Positions 27,536 through 35,889 of a stretch of 55,676 bases of DNA are shown piece after piece (position 1 is the stretch's first letter; each line of letters opens with the position of its first letter). Source of the stretch: an uncultured Erysipelotrichaceae bacterium (GTDB lineage Bacteria; Bacillota_I; Bacilli_A; RF39; UBA660); assembly GCA_902780585.1 (NCBI GenBank), contig CACZGA010000009.1:1-55676 (forward strand). Reading direction: 5' to 3'. The position numbers and the translations under genes are program-made. The notes beneath the pieces are model-generated. The model saw only the letters and a list, made by a program, of their open reading frames with translations, ran no database searches and was not told the origin of the DNA.

Positions 27536-28330
27536 CTATTTTAAAAATTTATCATTTATTTTTGTAATAAAGTTATAATCTTTCTTTCTTATTAATTTTA
27601 TTTTTTTATCTCTAATTGAGATTACTAAGTTTTCTATATTATCATAGTAATAATTATCTCCATCGATAGTAATCATCATTTTATCTGGTTTAGGTTTTAT
27701 TTCAATATTCTTTTTACCAGGCATTACTACTGAGTTTATTAAATTTCTGTAACTTCTATTGTTTAGGGGTGCAATAGGTGTTAATTGAAGAGTATGGAAT
27801 GTATTATAAACAATACTTCCTCCGAAACTTAAGTTATAAGCTGTTGAACCAAAAGAAGTTGATACTAATAAGCCATCTCCTACATATTCTTCTAGTAAAA
27901 CTCCATCTACGTAAACATCTAATTTAGTAGTGTTTAATTCAGAATCTCTTATTATTAATTCATTTAAATAATATAAATGATCTTTTAATTCCGGAGTATT
28001 AATAGTAGCTTCTGCAATACCTATTTCTTCATAGGTATAATCTCCTTTTTCAAGAGACTCTATAAAACTAAGAATTTCTTGTTCTTCTATGTCTTGAGCA
28101 AAGCCTAATGTTCCAGCATTTACTCCTACGTATAATACATCCGAATTGAAGTTTGTTTCTTTAACCATTCTAAGGAAAGCTCCATCTCCACCAATAGATA
28201 TTGCAACTGAATAGTCTTCTTCTACTATTTCAAAGTTTTTAGCTAATAAAGTGCTTTTTACTTTTTCAGCTATACGTAGTGATTTTTCATTATTATTAAT
28301 TATTAATTTTACTCTTTTATTTTTACTCAT
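27536..28330 (-). CDS. nadK: NAD kinase
   Basis: Phosphorylates NAD to NADP. Key motif Ile-Gly-Gly-Asp-Gly-Ala-Phe-Leu (about 47-54), the conserved Leu-Asn-Glu loop near 115-117, and Val-Ser-Thr-x-x-Gly-Ser-Thr-Ala-Tyr (about 149-158) are all present. Length 264 matches Bacillota NadK. It follows nadD after a 49-base gap which contains a possible internal promoter (TGTTATAAT). AGGTGAAAT ribosome site. Confidence 0.95.
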   Translation of the reverse strand: MSKNKRVKLIINNNEKSLRIAEKVKSTLLAKNFEIVEEDYSVAISIGGDGAFLRMVKETNFNSDVLYVGVNAGTLGFAQDIEEQEILSFIESLEKGDYTYEEIGIAEATINTPELKDHLYYLNELIIRDSELNTTKLDVYVDGVLLEEYVGDGLLVSTSFGSTAYNLSFGGSIVYNTFHTLQLTPIAPLNNRSYRNLINSVVMPGKKNIEIKPKPDKMMITIDGDNYYYDNIENLVISIRDKKIKLIRKKDYNFITKINDKFLK

Positions 28331-28379: not shown

Positions 28380-28970
28380 TTAATTTTGATATAAATGATT
28401 TTTAACTATATAGTCTAATACATCTTTATCTACATATTTTTCTAATAAAGTCATATCTTTTTCTTTTATGGCTTTTCTTACTATTGTTGAAGATATATTG
28501 CTTGTTTCTATTTCGGCAATAATAATTCTATCATTATACGCAGCATACTCTTTTTTTATTTCTTTAACATCTTGGCCATTTCTAGGAATTACTAGTATTT
28601 TGCAACATTCTAATACTTTTTCCCATTGCTCCCACTTTTTTAAATCTGTTAAATTGTCTGAGCCACATATAAAGAATAATTCATCATTTGGGTATTTATC
28701 TTTATAATAAGCCATTGTTTCATAAGTAAATACTTCTTTTTCTTGGAATTCATAAGTACTAATTTTAATATTTTGTTTATCTTTTGTCATTTGTTCTAAA
28801 AGTTTATAACGTATTTCATTACCTAATAAATTATTCTTATAATGATATTTTACACCTGTTGGGACTATTATAATTTTATCTACATATTCTTTTTTTATTA
28901 ACTCTTCAACAATTGATTTATGCATAATATGTGGGGGATTAAAACTTCCTCCATAGATTCCAATTTTCAT
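28380..28970 (-). CDS. nadD: Nicotinate-nucleotide adenylyltransferase
   Basis: Converts nicotinate mononucleotide and ATP to deamido-NAD. The nucleotidyltransferase motif Gly-Gly-Ser-Phe-Asn-Pro-Pro-His is at residues 7-14, and the C-terminal Ile-Ser-Ser-Thr-Ile-Val-Arg near 160-166 is the ISSTxxR motif. Phe-Phe-Ile-Cys-Gly-Ser-Asp-Asn is the middle motif. A 196-residue protein of normal size. Fourteen bases downstream of prs in the same operon. Confidence 0.95.
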   Translation of the reverse strand: MKIGIYGGSFNPPHIMHKSIVEELIKKEYVDKIIIVPTGVKYHYKNNLLGNEIRYKLLEQMTKDKQNIKISTYEFQEKEVFTYETMAYYKDKYPNDELFFICGSDNLTDLKKWEQWEKVLECCKILVIPRNGQDVKEIKKEYAAYNDRIIIAEIETSNISSTIVRKAIKEKDMTLLEKYVDKDVLDYIVKNHLYQN

Positions 28971-28984
28971 AATTTACCTCTCTT

Positions 28985-30094
28985 CTAGATTTCTAATTGT
29001 AATTGTTTTTCCTCTTCTTCTTTTTTCTTTTGTATTTTATGGAGCATTTTCTTTTGACCATTTAATAGTGGAGCAGGATCTTCATTATGATAATATGTAT
29101 TTATAATATTTGCTAAGTATTTGGAACAATCAACATCTTGATACCAAGGTTTTTGTTTTACTTCTTCTGGTATATATGTTAAGTTTGTTGAATATAATTT
29201 TTGAAATATACCTTTTTCATAAGCTTCTTGAAAACGAGAAGTTCCTTCTGTAAATAAAGAGAATGTAACAATTAAAAATATTTTTTCTACTCCTTTTAGT
29301 TTTAATTGTTCGGCTACTTCTAAGATTGAACCACCACTTGCTATCATGTCATCTACTATAATAATATCTTTTCCTTTTGGGTTAGCTCCCATATACATAT
29401 GCTCTACTATTGGGTTTTTGCCGTTTATAACTTTTGATAAATCTCTTCTTTTATAGAAGACTCCAGCATCTACACCTAACATTTCGGCATAATAACGAGC
29501 TCTTTCCATGGCACCCATATCAGGAGCAATTACTAATAAGTCTTTAATTTCTTCTCTATTGATTAATTCTTCTAAAATACGATGGGTTGGATAATAGTTT
29601 TCAAAAGGAAGTCTTGGGATGGCGTTACATACACTGGCATTGTGGGCATCAAAAGTAATAATGTTTTTTACGCCGATATTTTCTAGTTCTTGTAGGGCTA
29701 TTGCGCAATCTAGAGATTCGTTTCCTTTTCTTTTGTCTTGCCTTGATTGATAAAGAAGTGGCATAATTACAGTAATTTTGGCTGCGTGACCACTAGTCGC
29801 CGCAATACTTCTTTTAATATCTTGAAAGTGTTCATCAGGTGACATTTCATGGTCTTTTCCATGATACTTATATGTTATTCCATAATTTCCAATATCACTA
29901 AGAATGTATAGATCTGCATTGTTAATATTATCATGGATTCTTACCTTTCCCTCGCCATTACTAAAGCGGTCTGGTGTATAATCTAATATTATTTTTTCTT
30001 CTTGTGTGTTTAACCTTTTTAATTCTTTGGCAATTTTTTCACCTAATTCTTGGCAATTAGGCATTACTAATAATTTTAATTTTCTATTATCCAT
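28985..30094 (-). CDS. prs: Divergent ribose-phosphate pyrophosphokinase (PRPP synthetase)
   Basis: Makes PRPP from ribose 5-phosphate and ATP. Recognised from the PRPP-binding loop Val-Asp-Asp-Met-Ile-Ala-Ser-Gly-Gly-Ser (about 245-254), Arg-Gln-Asp-Lys-Arg at about 114-118, and Thr-Phe-Asp-Ala-His-Asn near 147-152, which stands where the usual Asp-Leu-His is. At 369 residues it is ~50 longer than usual, with a Lys/Glu/Gln-rich C-terminal tail after residue 340. The location between nadE and nadD suggests it supplies PRPP for the nicotinate phosphoribosyltransferase encoded upstream. The sequence is divergent, so a second, housekeeping prs elsewhere is likely. Confidence 0.85.
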   Translation of the reverse strand: MDNRKLKLLVMPNCQELGEKIAKELKRLNTQEEKIILDYTPDRFSNGEGKVRIHDNINNADLYILSDIGNYGITYKYHGKDHEMSPDEHFQDIKRSIAATSGHAAKITVIMPLLYQSRQDKRKGNESLDCAIALQELENIGVKNIITFDAHNASVCNAIPRLPFENYYPTHRILEELINREEIKDLLVIAPDMGAMERARYYAEMLGVDAGVFYKRRDLSKVINGKNPIVEHMYMGANPKGKDIIIVDDMIASGGSILEVAEQLKLKGVEKIFLIVTFSLFTEGTSRFQEAYEKGIFQKLYSTNLTYIPEEVKQKPWYQDVDCSKYLANIINTYYHNEDPAPLLNGQKKMLHKIQKKKEEEEKQLQLEI

Positions 30095-30108: not shown

Positions 30109-30849
30109 TTATTGGTAATATGTGGGTGTTATAAACTTATGAGTATTATTTTGATGCATTTTATCTATTTTATTCTTAACATCTTCAGATACTTCTTCTT
30201 TATTAATTACTTTAGCAATATCTTTATATGTTACACCTAATTTTTCTTCATCACTTTTACCACTTAAACCATCACTTGGGGTTTTATATAAAATATTATG
30301 TGGAACATTTAATTCTTCACCTAGTTGATATACTTCTTCAACAGTAAAGTCTGATAATACTTTAATATCACAAACTGAATCTCCACCCTTAGTAAAGTAG
30401 CCTACATACTCTTCACATTTATTACTAGTGCCAGCTACGATATATCTTTTATTATCTTTTACTGATAACATTTGAGCTATATAGTAAAGAGTAGACATTC
30501 TAAGTCTAGGTTTTAAGTTTATTTCACTATCTTCAGAAATAACAAATTCATTTAGTTTCATAGCTTCTTTAGTAAAAGTATCAAATGTCTCGGTTAGATC
30601 CATGTTTAATAGTCTTATTCCATAGTGGGTTGCTAAGGATATGGCATCTATTCTATCTTGTTCATTAGAGTGGCATGGCATTGTTACTCCTACAACATTG
30701 TCTTTACCTAAAGCATTTACCATTAGAGCTAAGACAACAGCTGAGTCTTTGCCACCACTTATACCTAAGACTACACCACCTAGATTATGTTTACTAAAAT
30801 AATCATTAATAAAACTTTTTATTCTTTCAACTTGATCTCTGGCATTCAT
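30109..30849 (-). CDS. nadE: NH3-dependent NAD synthetase
   Basis: Amidates deamido-NAD with ammonia. The PP-loop is Ser-Gly-Gly-Lys-Asp-Ser at 31-36, followed by a typical Ala-Gly-Thr-Ser-Asn and Thr-Lys-Gly-Gly-Asp for adenylate and metal binding. The 246 residues lack a glutaminase domain, hence ammonia-dependent. The start ATG overlaps the pncB stop (ATGA) by four bases, so translation is coupled; prs starts 14 bases after it. Confidence 0.95.
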   Translation of the reverse strand: MNARDQVERIKSFINDYFSKHNLGGVVLGISGGKDSAVVLALMVNALGKDNVVGVTMPCHSNEQDRIDAISLATHYGIRLLNMDLTETFDTFTKEAMKLNEFVISEDSEINLKPRLRMSTLYYIAQMLSVKDNKRYIVAGTSNKCEEYVGYFTKGGDSVCDIKVLSDFTVEEVYQLGEELNVPHNILYKTPSDGLSGKSDEEKLGVTYKDIAKVINKEEVSEDVKNKIDKMHQNNTHKFITPTYYQ

Positions 30850-32236
30850 ATTATTTCTTCCCCCTTAAATTCTAGTATCATATTATGTTTTAAATTTCTT
30901 AGTTTATCACTTAAATCTACATAGTATTCATGGGGATTTAATAGTCTTGTTATTTCAGGATAAAAAGATTCATATTCTTTTTGACAATAGTCCTGACTAT
31001 CTTTTAAAGATGGGATGTTATAAACTCTTTGGCCATCTTTAAAGATCGGTACTTGTAATTCTTTTATAGTATAGTTTGTTAGAGTAGTCTTTTTCCATGT
31101 TTCAGTTGAATGAGTTAAAGTATAACTATCTAGGTTAATTGCTTCATCATTTAAAGCAATTAAGTCTCCTCTAGCAAAACCTGTTTCTTTATCATAAAAA
31201 CGTATTACTTTCTTAAAGCCTGGGGTAGTTGTTTTTATAGGATTATCGCTTACTTTCATACGAGGTGAAATCGTGTTATTTTCTTCTTTAGCAACTAATT
31301 TATATACGCCACCTACTCTTTCACAAGAGGCCGCAATATTATCTCCTACACCTAATGAATTAAAGCAGGCTCCTTGGCTTATTAAATCTTTAATAGTATA
31401 TTCATCTAGACCATTACTTAGGCAAATAGTTGTATCTTTATAGCCAGCTTCATCTAGTATTTTTCTAGATTCTTTAGAGAGATAAGCTAAATCTCCAGAG
31501 TCAATTCTTATACCTTTAAAAGGTAAATTATTTGGTTTTAAGTAGTTGTCTGCTACCTTAATAGCATTTAACAAACCACTACGTAGGGTATCATATGTAT
31601 CTACTAAAAAAACACAATTATTTGGATTAGCTTTGGCATAACCTAAGAAAGCTTCATATTCGTCTTTTTCTTCTGTTACCAAAGAATGAGCCATAGTACC
31701 TAAAACTGGTATATTATATTTTTTTCCGGCATAAGTATTACTTGTACCAATGCAACCACCAATAAAGGCATATTTACTAGCTTCAATAGAAGAATCTATA
31801 CCTCTGGCACGTCTAGCACCAAATTCCATAACAGGAATATTTTGAGCAGAACTTGTTATCCTTTTAGAAGCAGTCGTTACTAGAGAGGCATGGTTAAAAC
31901 AAGCTAATAGAGATGTTTCTAATAATTGAGCTGTTATAGCGTCTGCTCTTACTGTAATAATTGGTTCATTGGGAAAAACAATGGTATTAAATAATCTAAA
32001 AAAGTATCTTGAAATAGATTTAGACTTTTTAAATACGCAATATCATCTTCAGCAAAGTGGAAGTTTTCAACATATTCAATAATTTCTTCTAGTCCCCCAC
32101 TAATTGTATATCCTCCTTTAAAAGGATTTTTTCTAAAGAATATATCAAAATATAGTATTTCATCTTTTTTTCCTTCTAAAAAGTAAGTTTGAGCCATAGT
32201 TAATTCATATAAGTCTGTTACTAGTGTTTTATTCAT
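30846..32236 (-). pseudogene. pncB: Nicotinate phosphoribosyltransferase, disrupted by an internal out-of-frame deletion
   Basis: Two frames together form one NaPRT. The N-terminal part (to 32236) has Leu-Val-Thr-Asp-Leu-Tyr-Glu-Leu-Thr-Met-Ala-Gln and then Phe-Leu-Asp-Tyr-Leu. The C-terminal part, open from about 31985 down to 30846, begins Thr-Ile-Val-Phe-Pro-Asn-Glu-Pro and holds Glu-Phe-Gly-Ala-Arg-Arg. At the junction (about 31983-31991) roughly 15 residues that normally contain Phe-x-Gly-Asp-Ile-Tyr and the Pro-Glu-Gly preceding Thr are missing, with a frame change (about 43 bases lost, estimated from family pattern). No slippery sequence explains this as programmed frameshifting. Upstream it has an AGGAG site and a leader RNA. 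Either a recent pseudogene or an assembly error in an otherwise intact NAD operon. Confidence 0.85.
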
Positions 32237-32259
32237 AGTATTCTCCTTTTATAATGAAA

Positions 32260-32354
32260 CAAAAAAGGAACGGTTGTATTATTTCCGTTCAATTATTTAC
32301 ATTGTAGGTAAGTATAACGAATAAATATTTTTCATTATCATTACCTACCCTTCT
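32260..32354 (-). promoter_or_regulatory. Leader RNA of the NAD operon: long hairpin plus intrinsic terminator (attenuator candidate)
   Basis: On the - strand the predicted 5' UTR begins near 32354 and first forms an elongated hairpin. GTAGGTAA pairs with TTACCTAC (32348-32341 with 32311-32304), continued by ATAA/TTAT and GAA/TTC stems across small symmetric mismatches. A second hairpin GAACGG/CCGTTC (32290-32285 with 32273-32268) then runs into C-T6, a classic intrinsic terminator, placed 25 bases before the AGGAG ribosome site of pncB. This is the layout of a transcription attenuator or riboswitch. I cannot match it to T-box or known NAD riboswitches. The ligand, if any, is inferred only from the operon content. 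Confidence 0.6.
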
Positions 32355-32360
32355 ATATCC

Positions 32361-32389
32361 ATTATACTCTTATTACTTTTTTCACTCAA
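32361..32389 (-). promoter_or_regulatory. Promoter of the NAD operon
   Basis: TTGAGT (32389-32384), a 17-base spacer and TATAAT (32366-32361) point to a start near 32354, which puts the long hairpin at the very 5' end of the transcript. The 100 bases further upstream (32390-32490) hold no clear feature. Confidence 0.6.
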
Positions 32390-32540: not shown

Positions 32541-34169
32541 TTATTTATGATATACAGTCTTCAAATCTGGACTTTCTTCTAGCAACATAGGGCTTGGAAT
32601 AAAATCAGTGATTACGGGTTTAAAGGGTGGATTATTAATTGTATATGTAACATTAGAAACATCATACTTTGGTTTTCCATCTAGCAAATCTACTAAACTA
32701 GCTGGATCTTCAAAATCAATTCCAGGAGGTATTGTTATAGTGCCAAATTCAATTGGGAATTGTTCTTCAGAATTATCTTTTGAGACAAACACGCAATGAA
32801 AAGTAACATTTTTTGGTTCTGTATCTTTATTTTCCCATTGGTCCATAATACCTAAAACTATTTCATAAAGAGTTTTGTCTACAAGAATATTGAGGCGGGA
32901 GATTTTTGGTAGTCGTGATTCTTTTTCGCATTTTCTGAGCATAAGATAAATTAAGTCATAAGCATCTTTCCATGATTCTTCACAATTACCTATAAGGTAA
33001 TAGCCTTCATAATTGGCTGGTATTAATACATAGTCTTCATCGTGGGTCTTATAAAATGTTTTATCTTTTTCCACGTTATAATAACCATTTTGTTTATAAC
33101 TATGCTCATTTGGAATAATACCTTGGGAAGTTTTTAAGAACACCAAATCGCCAATTGTGATGACTTTTTCTATTCCTTTAGCGGCATCTTTTCGAGAAAT
33201 ACTAGGTATTTCAGTCATAGCATATAATTGTTTTTCTGTTAAATTTGGGTTGTTTAAATATAAACGGTCACCAAATTCTTGGTATAAGTAATCATGAAGT
33301 ATTTTTCTAGCTGAGTCATCTAAACCAACGACACTTCTAATACATTTTATGATATATTCAGGATCTTTGCCCTGTCTCATAAGTTGATCAAAATGAGCCT
33401 TTTCCCTGTTTAATTGGTCATATGATTCCAAAGATAGATTGTTGCTTTCTAGATACTTAACTAAAGAAATATCTCCTCTTAACCATTCCATATTATTTTG
33501 GTACCAATTACAAACAGCTTCAGTAAAATTTGAAGGACAATCTATGTATGAAGATTCATCGAAGATAAAACCTAAGTCTACAGTTTTTTCCTCTTCTTTG
33601 CATCTTCCTCTAGAAACAGTGATTGTTGAAGGAAGGGCTTCCACTAATTCCCATTTGTCTATATATATGTATTTTTTTCCATCCAAAAATAAAACTGGAA
33701 CCATTTTTTGTTTATATTCACTGCTACCATTTTTTGGTGGCCTAACAAAGGGTACTTCTTTCCAAGTATATCCAGCAAGATGGGACATACATTTTGGCAT
33801 CCATCCATCATGATATTTCTTACTATCTGCAAGTGGGATGTAACTTTTAGGATTTCTAACTCTATTTATCGTTTCTATACGTTCTGCTAAATCGTTTGTA
33901 TTTCCCATCATGCTTTTGGCATTTTTAAAAGTAGTTTCTGGCTTTTCATCAGTTACTAAAAGTCCTGTCGAATATGGATATTCATTAGACTTTCTGATGG
34001 GCACTTCTAATACTTCATTACCTGTCTTATCTGTTATAGTAAAACATTTCCCATCTTCTATATAGTATGGTATATATATAATTGTCTCGTGAGCACCAAA
34101 ACTTATGACGCTGTTATTCATATCAGTATAGAATTTGCCTATATACCATGTATGTTTATTATTACTCAT
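32541..34169 (-). CDS. Unknown protein, paralogue of the 34.3 kb gene
   Basis: Not recognised. About 542 soluble residues with no signal peptide. The first ~90 residues share a pattern with the 529-residue neighbour: Trp-Tyr-x-Gly-x-Phe-Tyr-x-Asp, then Gly-x-Cys-(Phe/Tyr)-Thr near 37-43, Pro-x-Arg and Tyr-Pro-Tyr-Ser-Thr-Gly-Leu. Both then have a central helical part (here Ala-Arg-Lys-Ile-Leu-His-Asp-Tyr-Leu, there Ala-Arg-Ile-Ile-Leu-Glu-Gln-Tyr-Leu) and a Pro-rich end (Ile-Thr-Asp-Phe-Ile-Pro-Ser-Pro here). I start at the ATG at 34169, preceded by AGAGGAG; an in-frame TTG six bases upstream is less likely. Confidence 0.7.
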   Translation of the reverse strand: MSNNKHTWYIGKFYTDMNNSVISFGAHETIIYIPYYIEDGKCFTITDKTGNEVLEVPIRKSNEYPYSTGLLVTDEKPETTFKNAKSMMGNTNDLAERIETINRVRNPKSYIPLADSKKYHDGWMPKCMSHLAGYTWKEVPFVRPPKNGSSEYKQKMVPVLFLDGKKYIYIDKWELVEALPSTITVSRGRCKEEEKTVDLGFIFDESSYIDCPSNFTEAVCNWYQNNMEWLRGDISLVKYLESNNLSLESYDQLNREKAHFDQLMRQGKDPEYIIKCIRSVVGLDDSARKILHDYLYQEFGDRLYLNNPNLTEKQLYAMTEIPSISRKDAAKGIEKVITIGDLVFLKTSQGIIPNEHSYKQNGYYNVEKDKTFYKTHDEDYVLIPANYEGYYLIGNCEESWKDAYDLIYLMLRKCEKESRLPKISRLNILVDKTLYEIVLGIMDQWENKDTEPKNVTFHCVFVSKDNSEEQFPIEFGTITIPPGIDFEDPASLVDLLDGKPKYDVSNVTYTINNPPFKPVITDFIPSPMLLEESPDLKTVYHK

Positions 34170-34226
34170 ATTCAATCTCCTCTTAATAACTTTCTATTCT
34201 ATTAGTTATTGGTTTATATGTCAACG

Positions 34227-34299: not shown

Positions 34300-35889
34300 T
34301 TAGTTGCCTTGTTTTTTAAATAATTCATTTCCTGCTAATGACTTGTACTTTGCTAACCAGCTTGAATCAGGCATATAATCTGTTGCTAGTGCAGGTTGTA
34401 ATTCATCAGCATACCAACTCCATTCAATAAGTCCATTATACACTGTTTTAACCTTAAACTCCCCTCTATGTGCAAAAGCTTTATTATAGTTAGGAAGATG
34501 AGCAGAAGCAATAATAAATTCAATATTAATTTCACCACCATTGTATAATGCTTCAGCTATATCAATGAGTCTTTTATCGAATATTACTTTTGTAGACCAA
34601 TCTCTTGCAAAATCTAAGTTCCACACATCTCCAGCGGGTATTATTTCCAGTCCATTTTTATCAAACATATCTTTTATCATGTTTTTAACTATGTTTGCCG
34701 TAATTAATAAGTTTTGATTTTGATATGCTTCGTTATCGCCAAGCTTTGCTAGTCTTTTTCTATCTTCAGAACTAGCTGCGGAATAAAACCTTGGATCATT
34801 TATTGAAACAAAATTTCCTTTTGGTCTAAATTCATATTGTTTTTGTTTTAAATCACTATAGGGGGTGAAAAAAATGTGTAATGCCCCGAAATCACCTGCA
34901 TATGTAACAATCTCTTTTAATCCACCTATTTCTATTTCTGGAGTGATTCTAGGAATTAATAACATAGCATCTCTTTCTTCAGTTCTTAAATATTGTTCAA
35001 GAATTATTCTAGCATTCTCATCACTAATCTTTAGGCTTCTTATAAATGTTTTGATTTTTTCAGAGCGAATTCCACCTCCTTTTAATGCACGAACCATTTC
35101 TAGAATTTTATTATGTTGTATAAATCCTTCAACTGTTAAGTCGTTTTCCTTTATAAATTTTATTTTTCTAAAGTATTCAGTATATTGGACCATATTTTTT
35201 TCATACATTTCTCTGGCTTGTTCACTTGAAATTGGTTCAATTGCAGCCCCTTCTTTAGGAACTCCCAGTGTCGTACATTTACCATTATTCCCATCATAGT
35301 CACAAATGATAGGAATTTCATATGTAGGAGCTTCTCTTAAATCCCAGCCATCTATATACATATGGATTCGTGGTCTAAACGGGCTGTCTACACTACCCCT
35401 TTTGTTTGGATAATACACAGGTATCAAAATAGATTTATAGTTACCAATATCATCATGCTCTGGTACTACAAATAAGCATTGATACCATTCTTCACTGTCA
35501 AGAGTGGAGGGAATAGAGTTTTGGTGGGCATTCCCATACTCTCCATTACTTATTCTTGGTTTTTTACGCCTTTCTTCAATTAATTTTATATTGTTTATAG
35601 TAAATTTAGTATAAAGTATAGAGAAAATTTGAGAAAGCCTTTTCTCAGCTTTCTGCCAATCAACTTTGGTTGAATCATTAGGCACAAGACCTGTTGAATA
35701 TGGATAATTACGTATCTGTCCACTCTTATAAGTTTCTCTCATAGGTAATAATACTATTTCACCATTATACGTGGTATAACAATTACCTTCATTATCTTTT
35801 TTATATGGAAAATCATGAATAACAGAAGTAATCCAATCACCTTCACTCAAGTCAGGATAAAAATCTCCAAAATACCAATTTTTACTCAT
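34300..35889 (-). CDS. Unknown protein, paralogue of the 32.5 kb gene
   Basis: Not recognised. 529 soluble residues. It shares the N-terminal pattern (Trp-Tyr-Phe-Gly-Asp-Phe-Tyr-Pro-Asp; Gly-Asn-Cys-Tyr-Thr; Tyr-Pro-Tyr-Ser-Thr-Gly-Leu) and the central helical stretch with its neighbour, but otherwise differs. Met-Tyr-Ile-Asp-Gly-Trp near 176-181 matches Ile-Tyr-Ile-Asp-Lys-Trp of the paralogue. Each gene has its own ribosome site and terminator, so they look like a tandem duplication with divergence. GGGAGTGAGTATTA before the ATG. Confidence 0.7.
   Translation of the reverse strand: MSKNWYFGDFYPDLSEGDWITSVIHDFPYKKDNEGNCYTTYNGEIVLLPMRETYKSGQIRNYPYSTGLVPNDSTKVDWQKAEKRLSQIFSILYTKFTINNIKLIEERRKKPRISNGEYGNAHQNSIPSTLDSEEWYQCLFVVPEHDDIGNYKSILIPVYYPNKRGSVDSPFRPRIHMYIDGWDLREAPTYEIPIICDYDGNNGKCTTLGVPKEGAAIEPISSEQAREMYEKNMVQYTEYFRKIKFIKENDLTVEGFIQHNKILEMVRALKGGGIRSEKIKTFIRSLKISDENARIILEQYLRTEERDAMLLIPRITPEIEIGGLKEIVTYAGDFGALHIFFTPYSDLKQKQYEFRPKGNFVSINDPRFYSAASSEDRKRLAKLGDNEAYQNQNLLITANIVKNMIKDMFDKNGLEIIPAGDVWNLDFARDWSTKVIFDKRLIDIAEALYNGGEINIEFIIASAHLPNYNKAFAHRGEFKVKTVYNGLIEWSWYADELQPALATDYMPDSSWLAKYKSLAGNELFKKQGN

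What the first reader, a model, noticed from the sequence alone, without database searches (positions are those of the whole stretch)
32237..32389. Leader RNA with attenuator layout upstream of the NAD salvage operon
A promoter (TTGAGT-17-TATAAT, 32389-32361) is followed within a few bases by an elongated hairpin (32304-32348, 8-bp base plus two inner stems). An intrinsic terminator (32260-32290) comes next and ends 25 bases before the pncB ribosome site. This is the geometry of a riboswitch or protein-controlled attenuator. I see no T-box, NAD-I or NAD-II riboswitch signature. A new nicotinate/NAD-responsive RNA, or a sensor of PRPP, is possible.
Basis: partly seen in the sequence, partly recalled or inferred. 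Interest (0 to 1): 0.75.

Follow-up and report, generated by a model that had tools for sequence, protein, structure and literature searches.

The report
Attenuator-like leader before NAD-salvage operon
A short RNA leader with a hairpin and a built-in stop signal sits in front of the NAD-recycling genes of an uncultured bacterium; it is real and shared with one sister species, but it was found nowhere else and looks like an ordinary, possibly translation-controlled, transcription brake rather than a new vitamin-sensing RNA.

Summary
On the minus strand a promoter (TTGAGT-17-TATAAT) is followed by a 5' hairpin (32304-32348, -15.8 kcal/mol, z -5), an intrinsic terminator (stem 32268-32290, T6 32261-32266) and pncB (ATG 32236). 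One sister species (G026, MAG RUG12568; PncB fragment 80% identical) keeps the promoter, the hairpin arms and a terminator at the same place; that terminator has unrelated sequence. The arms are 15/16 identical against 43/88 elsewhere in the leader (p = 0.0005). No such leader was found in the other 37 genus genomes or at about 105 pncB loci; most of those have pncB directly behind another gene. No Rfam family matches. No antiterminator pairing is shared by the two species, and the loop has diverged, so a nicotinate, NAD or PRPP riboswitch is not supported. Both leaders carry a short ORF inside the hairpin, preceded by a Shine-Dalgarno-like GAAGGG and ending just before the terminator. This resembles the vmlR layout of ribosome-mediated attenuation, but the ORF is only weakly above chance and the peptide is not conserved. 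Best reading: a lineage-specific transcription attenuator, perhaps translation-coupled. pncB itself carries a 43-bp frameshifting deletion in this assembly.

The parts
32361..32389 (-). Promoter TTGAGT-17-TATAAT
   Evidence: 24/30 identical with G026. Start site not measured; expected at about 32352-32355.
32348..32354 (-). Shine-Dalgarno-like AGAAGGG at the predicted 5' end of the RNA; GAAGGGUAGG is the best anti-SD match of the window leader (-10.9 kcal/mol)
   Evidence: block GAAGGGTAGGTAAT 14/14 identical in G026; AGAAGGG is the toeprint-proven uORF SD of B. subtilis vmlR (PMC9226507)
32304..32348 (-). 5' hairpin: outer 8-bp stem 32341-32348/32304-32311, inner 8-bp stem 32331-32338/32314-32321
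   Evidence: outer stem kept in G026, with one C-to-U change giving G.U and one added G-C pair
32297..32341 (-). Putative upstream ORF MIMKNIYSLYLPTM (ATG 32341 or 32335; stop TAA 32297-32299) overlapping the hairpin and ending 6 nt before the terminator stem
   Evidence: sequence; G026 counterpart MKIVDLKSYLPNNKQ; chance of such an ORF 8-21% per species, so weak
32261..32290 (-). Intrinsic terminator: stem GAACGG/CCGTTC, 11-nt loop, T6
   Evidence: G026 has AAAAAGGAAC-CTT-GTTCCTTTTT at the same place
32243..32249 (-). pncB Shine-Dalgarno AAAGGAG
   Evidence: sequence
30846..32236 (-). pncB (nicotinate phosphoribosyltransferase), split by a 43-bp frameshifting deletion near 31986 relative to G026
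30109..30849 (-). nadE, NAD synthase
28985..30094 (-). prs-like, phosphoribosylpyrophosphate synthetase
28380..28970 (-). nadD, nicotinate-nucleotide adenylyltransferase
27536..28330 (-). nadK, NAD kinase

Best explanation
The leader is a lineage-specific premature-termination (attenuator-type) 5' leader of the pncB-nadE-prs-nadD-nadK operon. RNA polymerase starts about 115-120 nt upstream of pncB and makes the 5' hairpin. It then meets an intrinsic terminator, so that only a fraction of transcripts reach pncB (inferred from sequence). Most likely the fraction depends on a ribosome translating the short ORF inside the hairpin. A ribosome sitting in the hairpin or at the stop codon, 6 nt or less from the terminator stem, would block the terminator or, in the window, free UUCGUU (32316-32321) to pair with AACGGA (32284-32289). 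Hairpin and terminator are supported by folding and by conservation in one sister species. Conditional control and translation of the ORF are inferred.
For: Hairpin z -5.0 and among the strongest 0.1% of 48-nt windows. Arms 15/16 identical between species against 43/88 in the rest of the leader, p = 0.0005. A terminator-like hairpin plus T tract lies at the same position in both species with different sequence, about 1% by shuffles in each. No minus-strand promoter-like match was listed between terminator and pncB. SD-like GAAGGGTAGG is conserved 5' of and into the hairpin, with an ATG 7-8 nt downstream in both and a stop just before the terminator in both. The layout matches vmlR: SD AGAAGGG, uORF within SL-1, terminator downstream (PMC9226507). 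Operon and neighbouring two-component genes are syntenic in G026.
Against: Only two sequences, so no real covariation test. The uORF is 8-21% likely by chance in each species; the peptides differ and are read in different registers against the hairpin arm. The possible antiterminator pairing in the window (-5.1 kcal/mol) has no counterpart in G026. The window's terminator is modest (-6.5 kcal/mol, 11-nt loop). No expression data.
Confidence: 0.4

Rival explanations
1. Constitutive tuning: the terminator passes a fixed fraction of polymerases and the 5'-terminal hairpin simply protects the mRNA end, as 5' stem-loops do in stable Bacillus leaders. There is no signal.
For: No mutually exclusive structure conserved in both species. 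Loop sequence not conserved (14/28). Hairpin begins a few nt from the predicted 5' end. Confined to two species.
Against: Retention of both hairpin and terminator while the terminator sequence was replaced suggests the combination matters; this does not require a signal.
Confidence: 0.3
2. The arms GGTAGGTAA/TTACCTACC are a DNA operator just downstream of the start site, bound by a repressor; the terminator is secondary.
For: Near-perfect inverted repeat next to the promoter. NAD operons of many bacteria are controlled by repressors such as NiaR and NrtR. G026 encodes a Nudix-winged-helix protein of NrtR type.
Against: Arms are separated by 26-29 bp, unusual for a dimer site. The one arm change in G026 keeps an RNA G.U pair but breaks DNA symmetry. 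No second copy of the repeat found in either genome. No NiaR (3H domain) found in either genome. Only a weak, interrupted NrtR remnant in G000.
Confidence: 0.12
3. A new nicotinate, NAD, NaMN or PRPP riboswitch or protein-bound RNA controls the terminator.
For: Position in front of NAD genes; hairpin plus terminator geometry; arms conserved.
Against: No Rfam match. Two species only. No conserved unpaired nucleotides apart from the 5' block, and the loop diverged. No conserved antiterminator. No LicT/BglG-type RNA-binding antiterminator domain found in either genome.
Confidence: 0.08
4. Fortuitous hairpin and terminator with no function, drifting in front of an operon (pncB is broken in this assembly).
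For: pncB carries a frameshifting 43-bp deletion; only two genomes share the leader.
Against: Arms conserved against a diverged loop (p = 0.0005); terminators in both species each about 1% by chance; pncB is intact in G026.
Confidence: 0.1

Closest known systems
vmlR leader of Bacillus subtilis (ribosome-mediated attenuation; PMC9226507)
   Same: SD AGAAGGG just 5' of the first stem-loop, short ORF inside the first stem-loop, intrinsic terminator downstream
   Different: Target gene is NAD salvage, not antibiotic resistance; uORF is 12-15 codons, not 3; leader is about half as long; no conserved antiterminator; no pause hairpin recognised; no experiment
NAD+-I (nadA motif) and NAD+-II (pnuC motif) riboswitches
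   Same: 5' leader of NAD-related genes
   Different: No match to any Rfam model; no conserved aptamer-like positions; NAD+-I is reported limited to Acidobacteria and NAD+-II is tied to pnuC (PMC7749635)
5'-terminal stabilising stem-loops of Bacillus mRNAs (aprE type; from own knowledge)
   Same: Stem-loop a few nt from the predicted 5' end
   Different: Here an intrinsic terminator lies between the stem-loop and the gene

Membership tests
Ribosome-mediated transcription attenuator (vmlR/bmrB type) | Intrinsic terminator between promoter and gene | tested here: met
   Predicted in window and G026; about 1% by shuffles in each
Ribosome-mediated transcription attenuator (vmlR/bmrB type) | Translated upstream ORF with SD, overlapping the first stem-loop | tested here: inconclusive
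   ORF and SD-like sequence present in both species, but 8-21% by chance per species; translation not shown
Ribosome-mediated transcription attenuator (vmlR/bmrB type) | Antiterminator formed by the 3' part of the first stem-loop with the terminator 5' arm | tested here: inconclusive
   6 bp, -5.1 kcal/mol in the window; no counterpart in G026
Ribosome-mediated transcription attenuator (vmlR/bmrB type) | Readthrough depends on ribosome stalling | not testable with these tools
   Needs reporter or Term-seq
NAD+-I / NAD+-II riboswitch | Match to the family covariance model | tested here: not met
   No hit at gathering threshold over the whole window; none among weak hits near the leader
New metabolite riboswitch class | Conserved structured aptamer across several species with covariation | tested here: not met
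   Two species only; one G-C to G.U change; loop 14/28 identical
NiaR- or NrtR-regulated promoter | Regulator encoded in the genome | tested here: inconclusive
   No 3H-domain NiaR found in either genome; NrtR-type protein in G026 over the cut-off, only a 23-bit remnant with a stop in G000
LicT/BglG antiterminator-controlled leader | CAT_RBD protein in the genome | tested here: not met
   None found in G000 or G026; controls ring

The most novel reading that the evidence does not exclude
A ribosome-sensing (uORF) attenuator that ties NAD salvage to the translation state of the cell, acquired when the pncB operon was separated from pncA and apparently replacing the promoter-proximal palindrome seen upstream of pncB in relatives.
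Probability: 0.15. Interest if true: 0.5.

Novelty: new member of a known kind. Interest (0 to 1): 0.27.

Why it matters
If translation-coupled, it would be an uncommon case of ribosome-mediated attenuation on a cofactor-salvage operon, in a poorly studied group of uncultured Bacilli. If not, it is one more lineage-specific terminator leader. It also warns against naming a riboswitch from geometry in a single genome.

Tried and rejected
Rfam at gathering and relaxed thresholds: nothing credible (preQ1-II 16 bits against cut-off 47, bglG-cis-reg in G026 22 against 80, both taken as chance). NiaR operator idea: no 3H-domain protein found. LicT/BglG antiterminator: no CAT_RBD found. Copies of the hairpin elsewhere in the genus: only the two pncB leaders stand out; the other pattern and model hits are weak. 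Conserved peptide in the uORF: a 'YLP' shared by both is read from the hairpin arm in different registers, so it is not taken as conservation. trp-type alternative pairing: possible in the window, absent in G026. More leaders through genome contigs: that scan gave the G026 locus again and leaderless relatives. A search of G000 for the PnuC of G026 found nothing, which without a positive control shows little.

Full report
WHAT IS THERE. All positions are on the minus strand. A promoter-like TTGAGT-17-TATAAT (32389-32361) is followed by a hairpin whose outer stem is GUAGGUAA/UUACCUAC (32341-32348 / 32304-32311) and whose single inner stem is 8 bp (32331-32338 / 32314-32321). It folds at -15.8 kcal/mol, z -5.0, with no shuffle as stable. 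Only 60 of 55,628 48-nt windows in the window fold as well. An intrinsic terminator follows: GAACGG, 11-nt loop, CCGUUC, then C and six T (32290-32261; -6.5 kcal/mol). About 0.8% of shuffles of this stretch give a comparable signal. The T tract ends 24 nt before the pncB ATG and about 11 nt before its Shine-Dalgarno. The downstream genes are pncB, nadE, a PRPP synthetase, nadD and nadK.

RELATIVES. The window lies in a 1.75-Mb draft genome (G000). Thirty-nine genomes of its genus, including G000, are held. DNA search finds the leader in only one other, G026 (73% over 181 nt, confirmed), which is MAG RUG12568 'uncultured Erysipelotrichaceae'. There the same response regulator - histidine kinase - leader - pncB-nadE-prs-nadD-nadK order holds. 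G026 lacks the two ORFs (32541-34175, 34300-35889) that separate kinase and leader in the window. In the pncB loci examined (105 distinct upstream sequences from genus, family and class, window and G026 included), pncB mostly follows another gene, often pncA, by less than 60 nt, and a few have a bare promoter. A covariance model of the hairpin finds no other pncB leader and only weak hits elsewhere in the genus.

TWO-SPECIES COMPARISON. Promoter 24/30 identical; GAAGGGTAGGTAAT 14/14; hairpin loop 14/28; 3' arm 7/8; the stretch from hairpin to ribosome site 26/54. The arms together (15/16) are conserved beyond the rest of the leader (43/88), p = 0.0005. The one change in the arm, C to U, keeps a G.U pair in RNA but breaks the DNA palindrome; G026 also gains one G-C pair at the base. 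The G026 terminator (AAAAAGGAAC-CUU-GUUCCUUUUU, -9.8 kcal/mol; -17 with its flanks) sits at the same place with different sequence. So hairpin and terminator are kept as features while their surroundings drift. With two sequences this is not a covariation test.

HOW IT MIGHT WORK. No pairing that excludes the terminator is shared by both species, so a classical riboswitch or trp-type switch is not supported. Both leaders contain a short ORF inside the hairpin: ATGATAATGAAA...TAA (MIMKNIYSLYLPTM) and ATGAAAATAGTT...TAG (MKIVDLKSYLPNNKQ). Each is preceded by GAAGGGTAGG, which pairs with the anti-Shine-Dalgarno at -10.9 kcal/mol, and each ends just before the terminator. In B. subtilis vmlR the toeprint-proven uORF Shine-Dalgarno is AGAAGGG, the uORF lies within the first stem-loop, and a terminator follows (PMC9226507). 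The window has AGAAGGG in the same place. However, an ORF meeting these limits arises in 8-21% of shuffles per species, the limits were set after seeing the sequences, and the two peptides are read from the arm in different registers. I therefore hold translation-coupled attenuation as the leading but unproven mechanism, with constitutive tuning close behind.

ALTERNATIVES TESTED. No NiaR (3H domain) and no LicT/BglG RNA-binding domain was found in G000 or G026, while control genomes ring. G026 encodes an NrtR-type protein at the end of a second NAD operon (pncA...pncB2...nadE...nadD...pnuC...NrtR-like). G000 shows only a weak remnant with a stop codon. An operator reading of the repeat remains possible but is disfavoured by the 26-29 bp between arms and the asymmetric change.

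pncB ITSELF. Compared with G026, the window's pncB lacks 43 bp near 31986, which shifts the frame and splits the gene into two ORFs. Only one pncB match was found in G000. This may be a real pseudogene or an assembly fault; the data here cannot tell.

VERDICT. The feature is real, lineage-specific and attenuator-like. It is ordinary in kind, with no support for a new metabolite-sensing RNA.

Noticed in passing
window 31986 (minus strand pncB): pncB carries a 43-bp frameshifting deletion relative to G026 and is the only pncB match in this genome; pseudogene or assembly fault.
   Followed up: partly
L034, L054, L057, L102, L136 and about 20 other loci, 30-39 nt upstream of pncB: A palindrome-like motif TTAAY-N5-RTTAA (e.g. 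TTAATAAAATGTTAA) recurs at a nearly fixed distance upstream of pncB across genera of the family: 28 of 105 upstream regions against 8.3 expected by shuffling. It is absent from the window and G026 leaders; similar sequence precedes the NrtR-linked NAD operon of G026. Possible operator or promoter element.
   Followed up: partly
L207 3431-11004 (G026 contig 26): G026 has a second NAD operon: pncA-like, a second pncB, Nudix, nadE, nadD-like, NMN adenylyltransferase-like, pnuC and an NrtR-type regulator.
   Followed up: partly
window 32541-34175 and 34300-35889, minus strand: Two large ORFs (544 and 529 aa) that look alike, have no Pfam match, each follow a TTGACA-17-TAGAAT promoter-like site, and interrupt the kinase-pncB synteny seen in G026.
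   Followed up: no
L147 6509-8716 (G026 contig 4): A 735-aa protein with about ten near-identical 'LTLPQNVGGxLDLxSLESAEG' repeats just upstream of the two-component genes.
   Followed up: no
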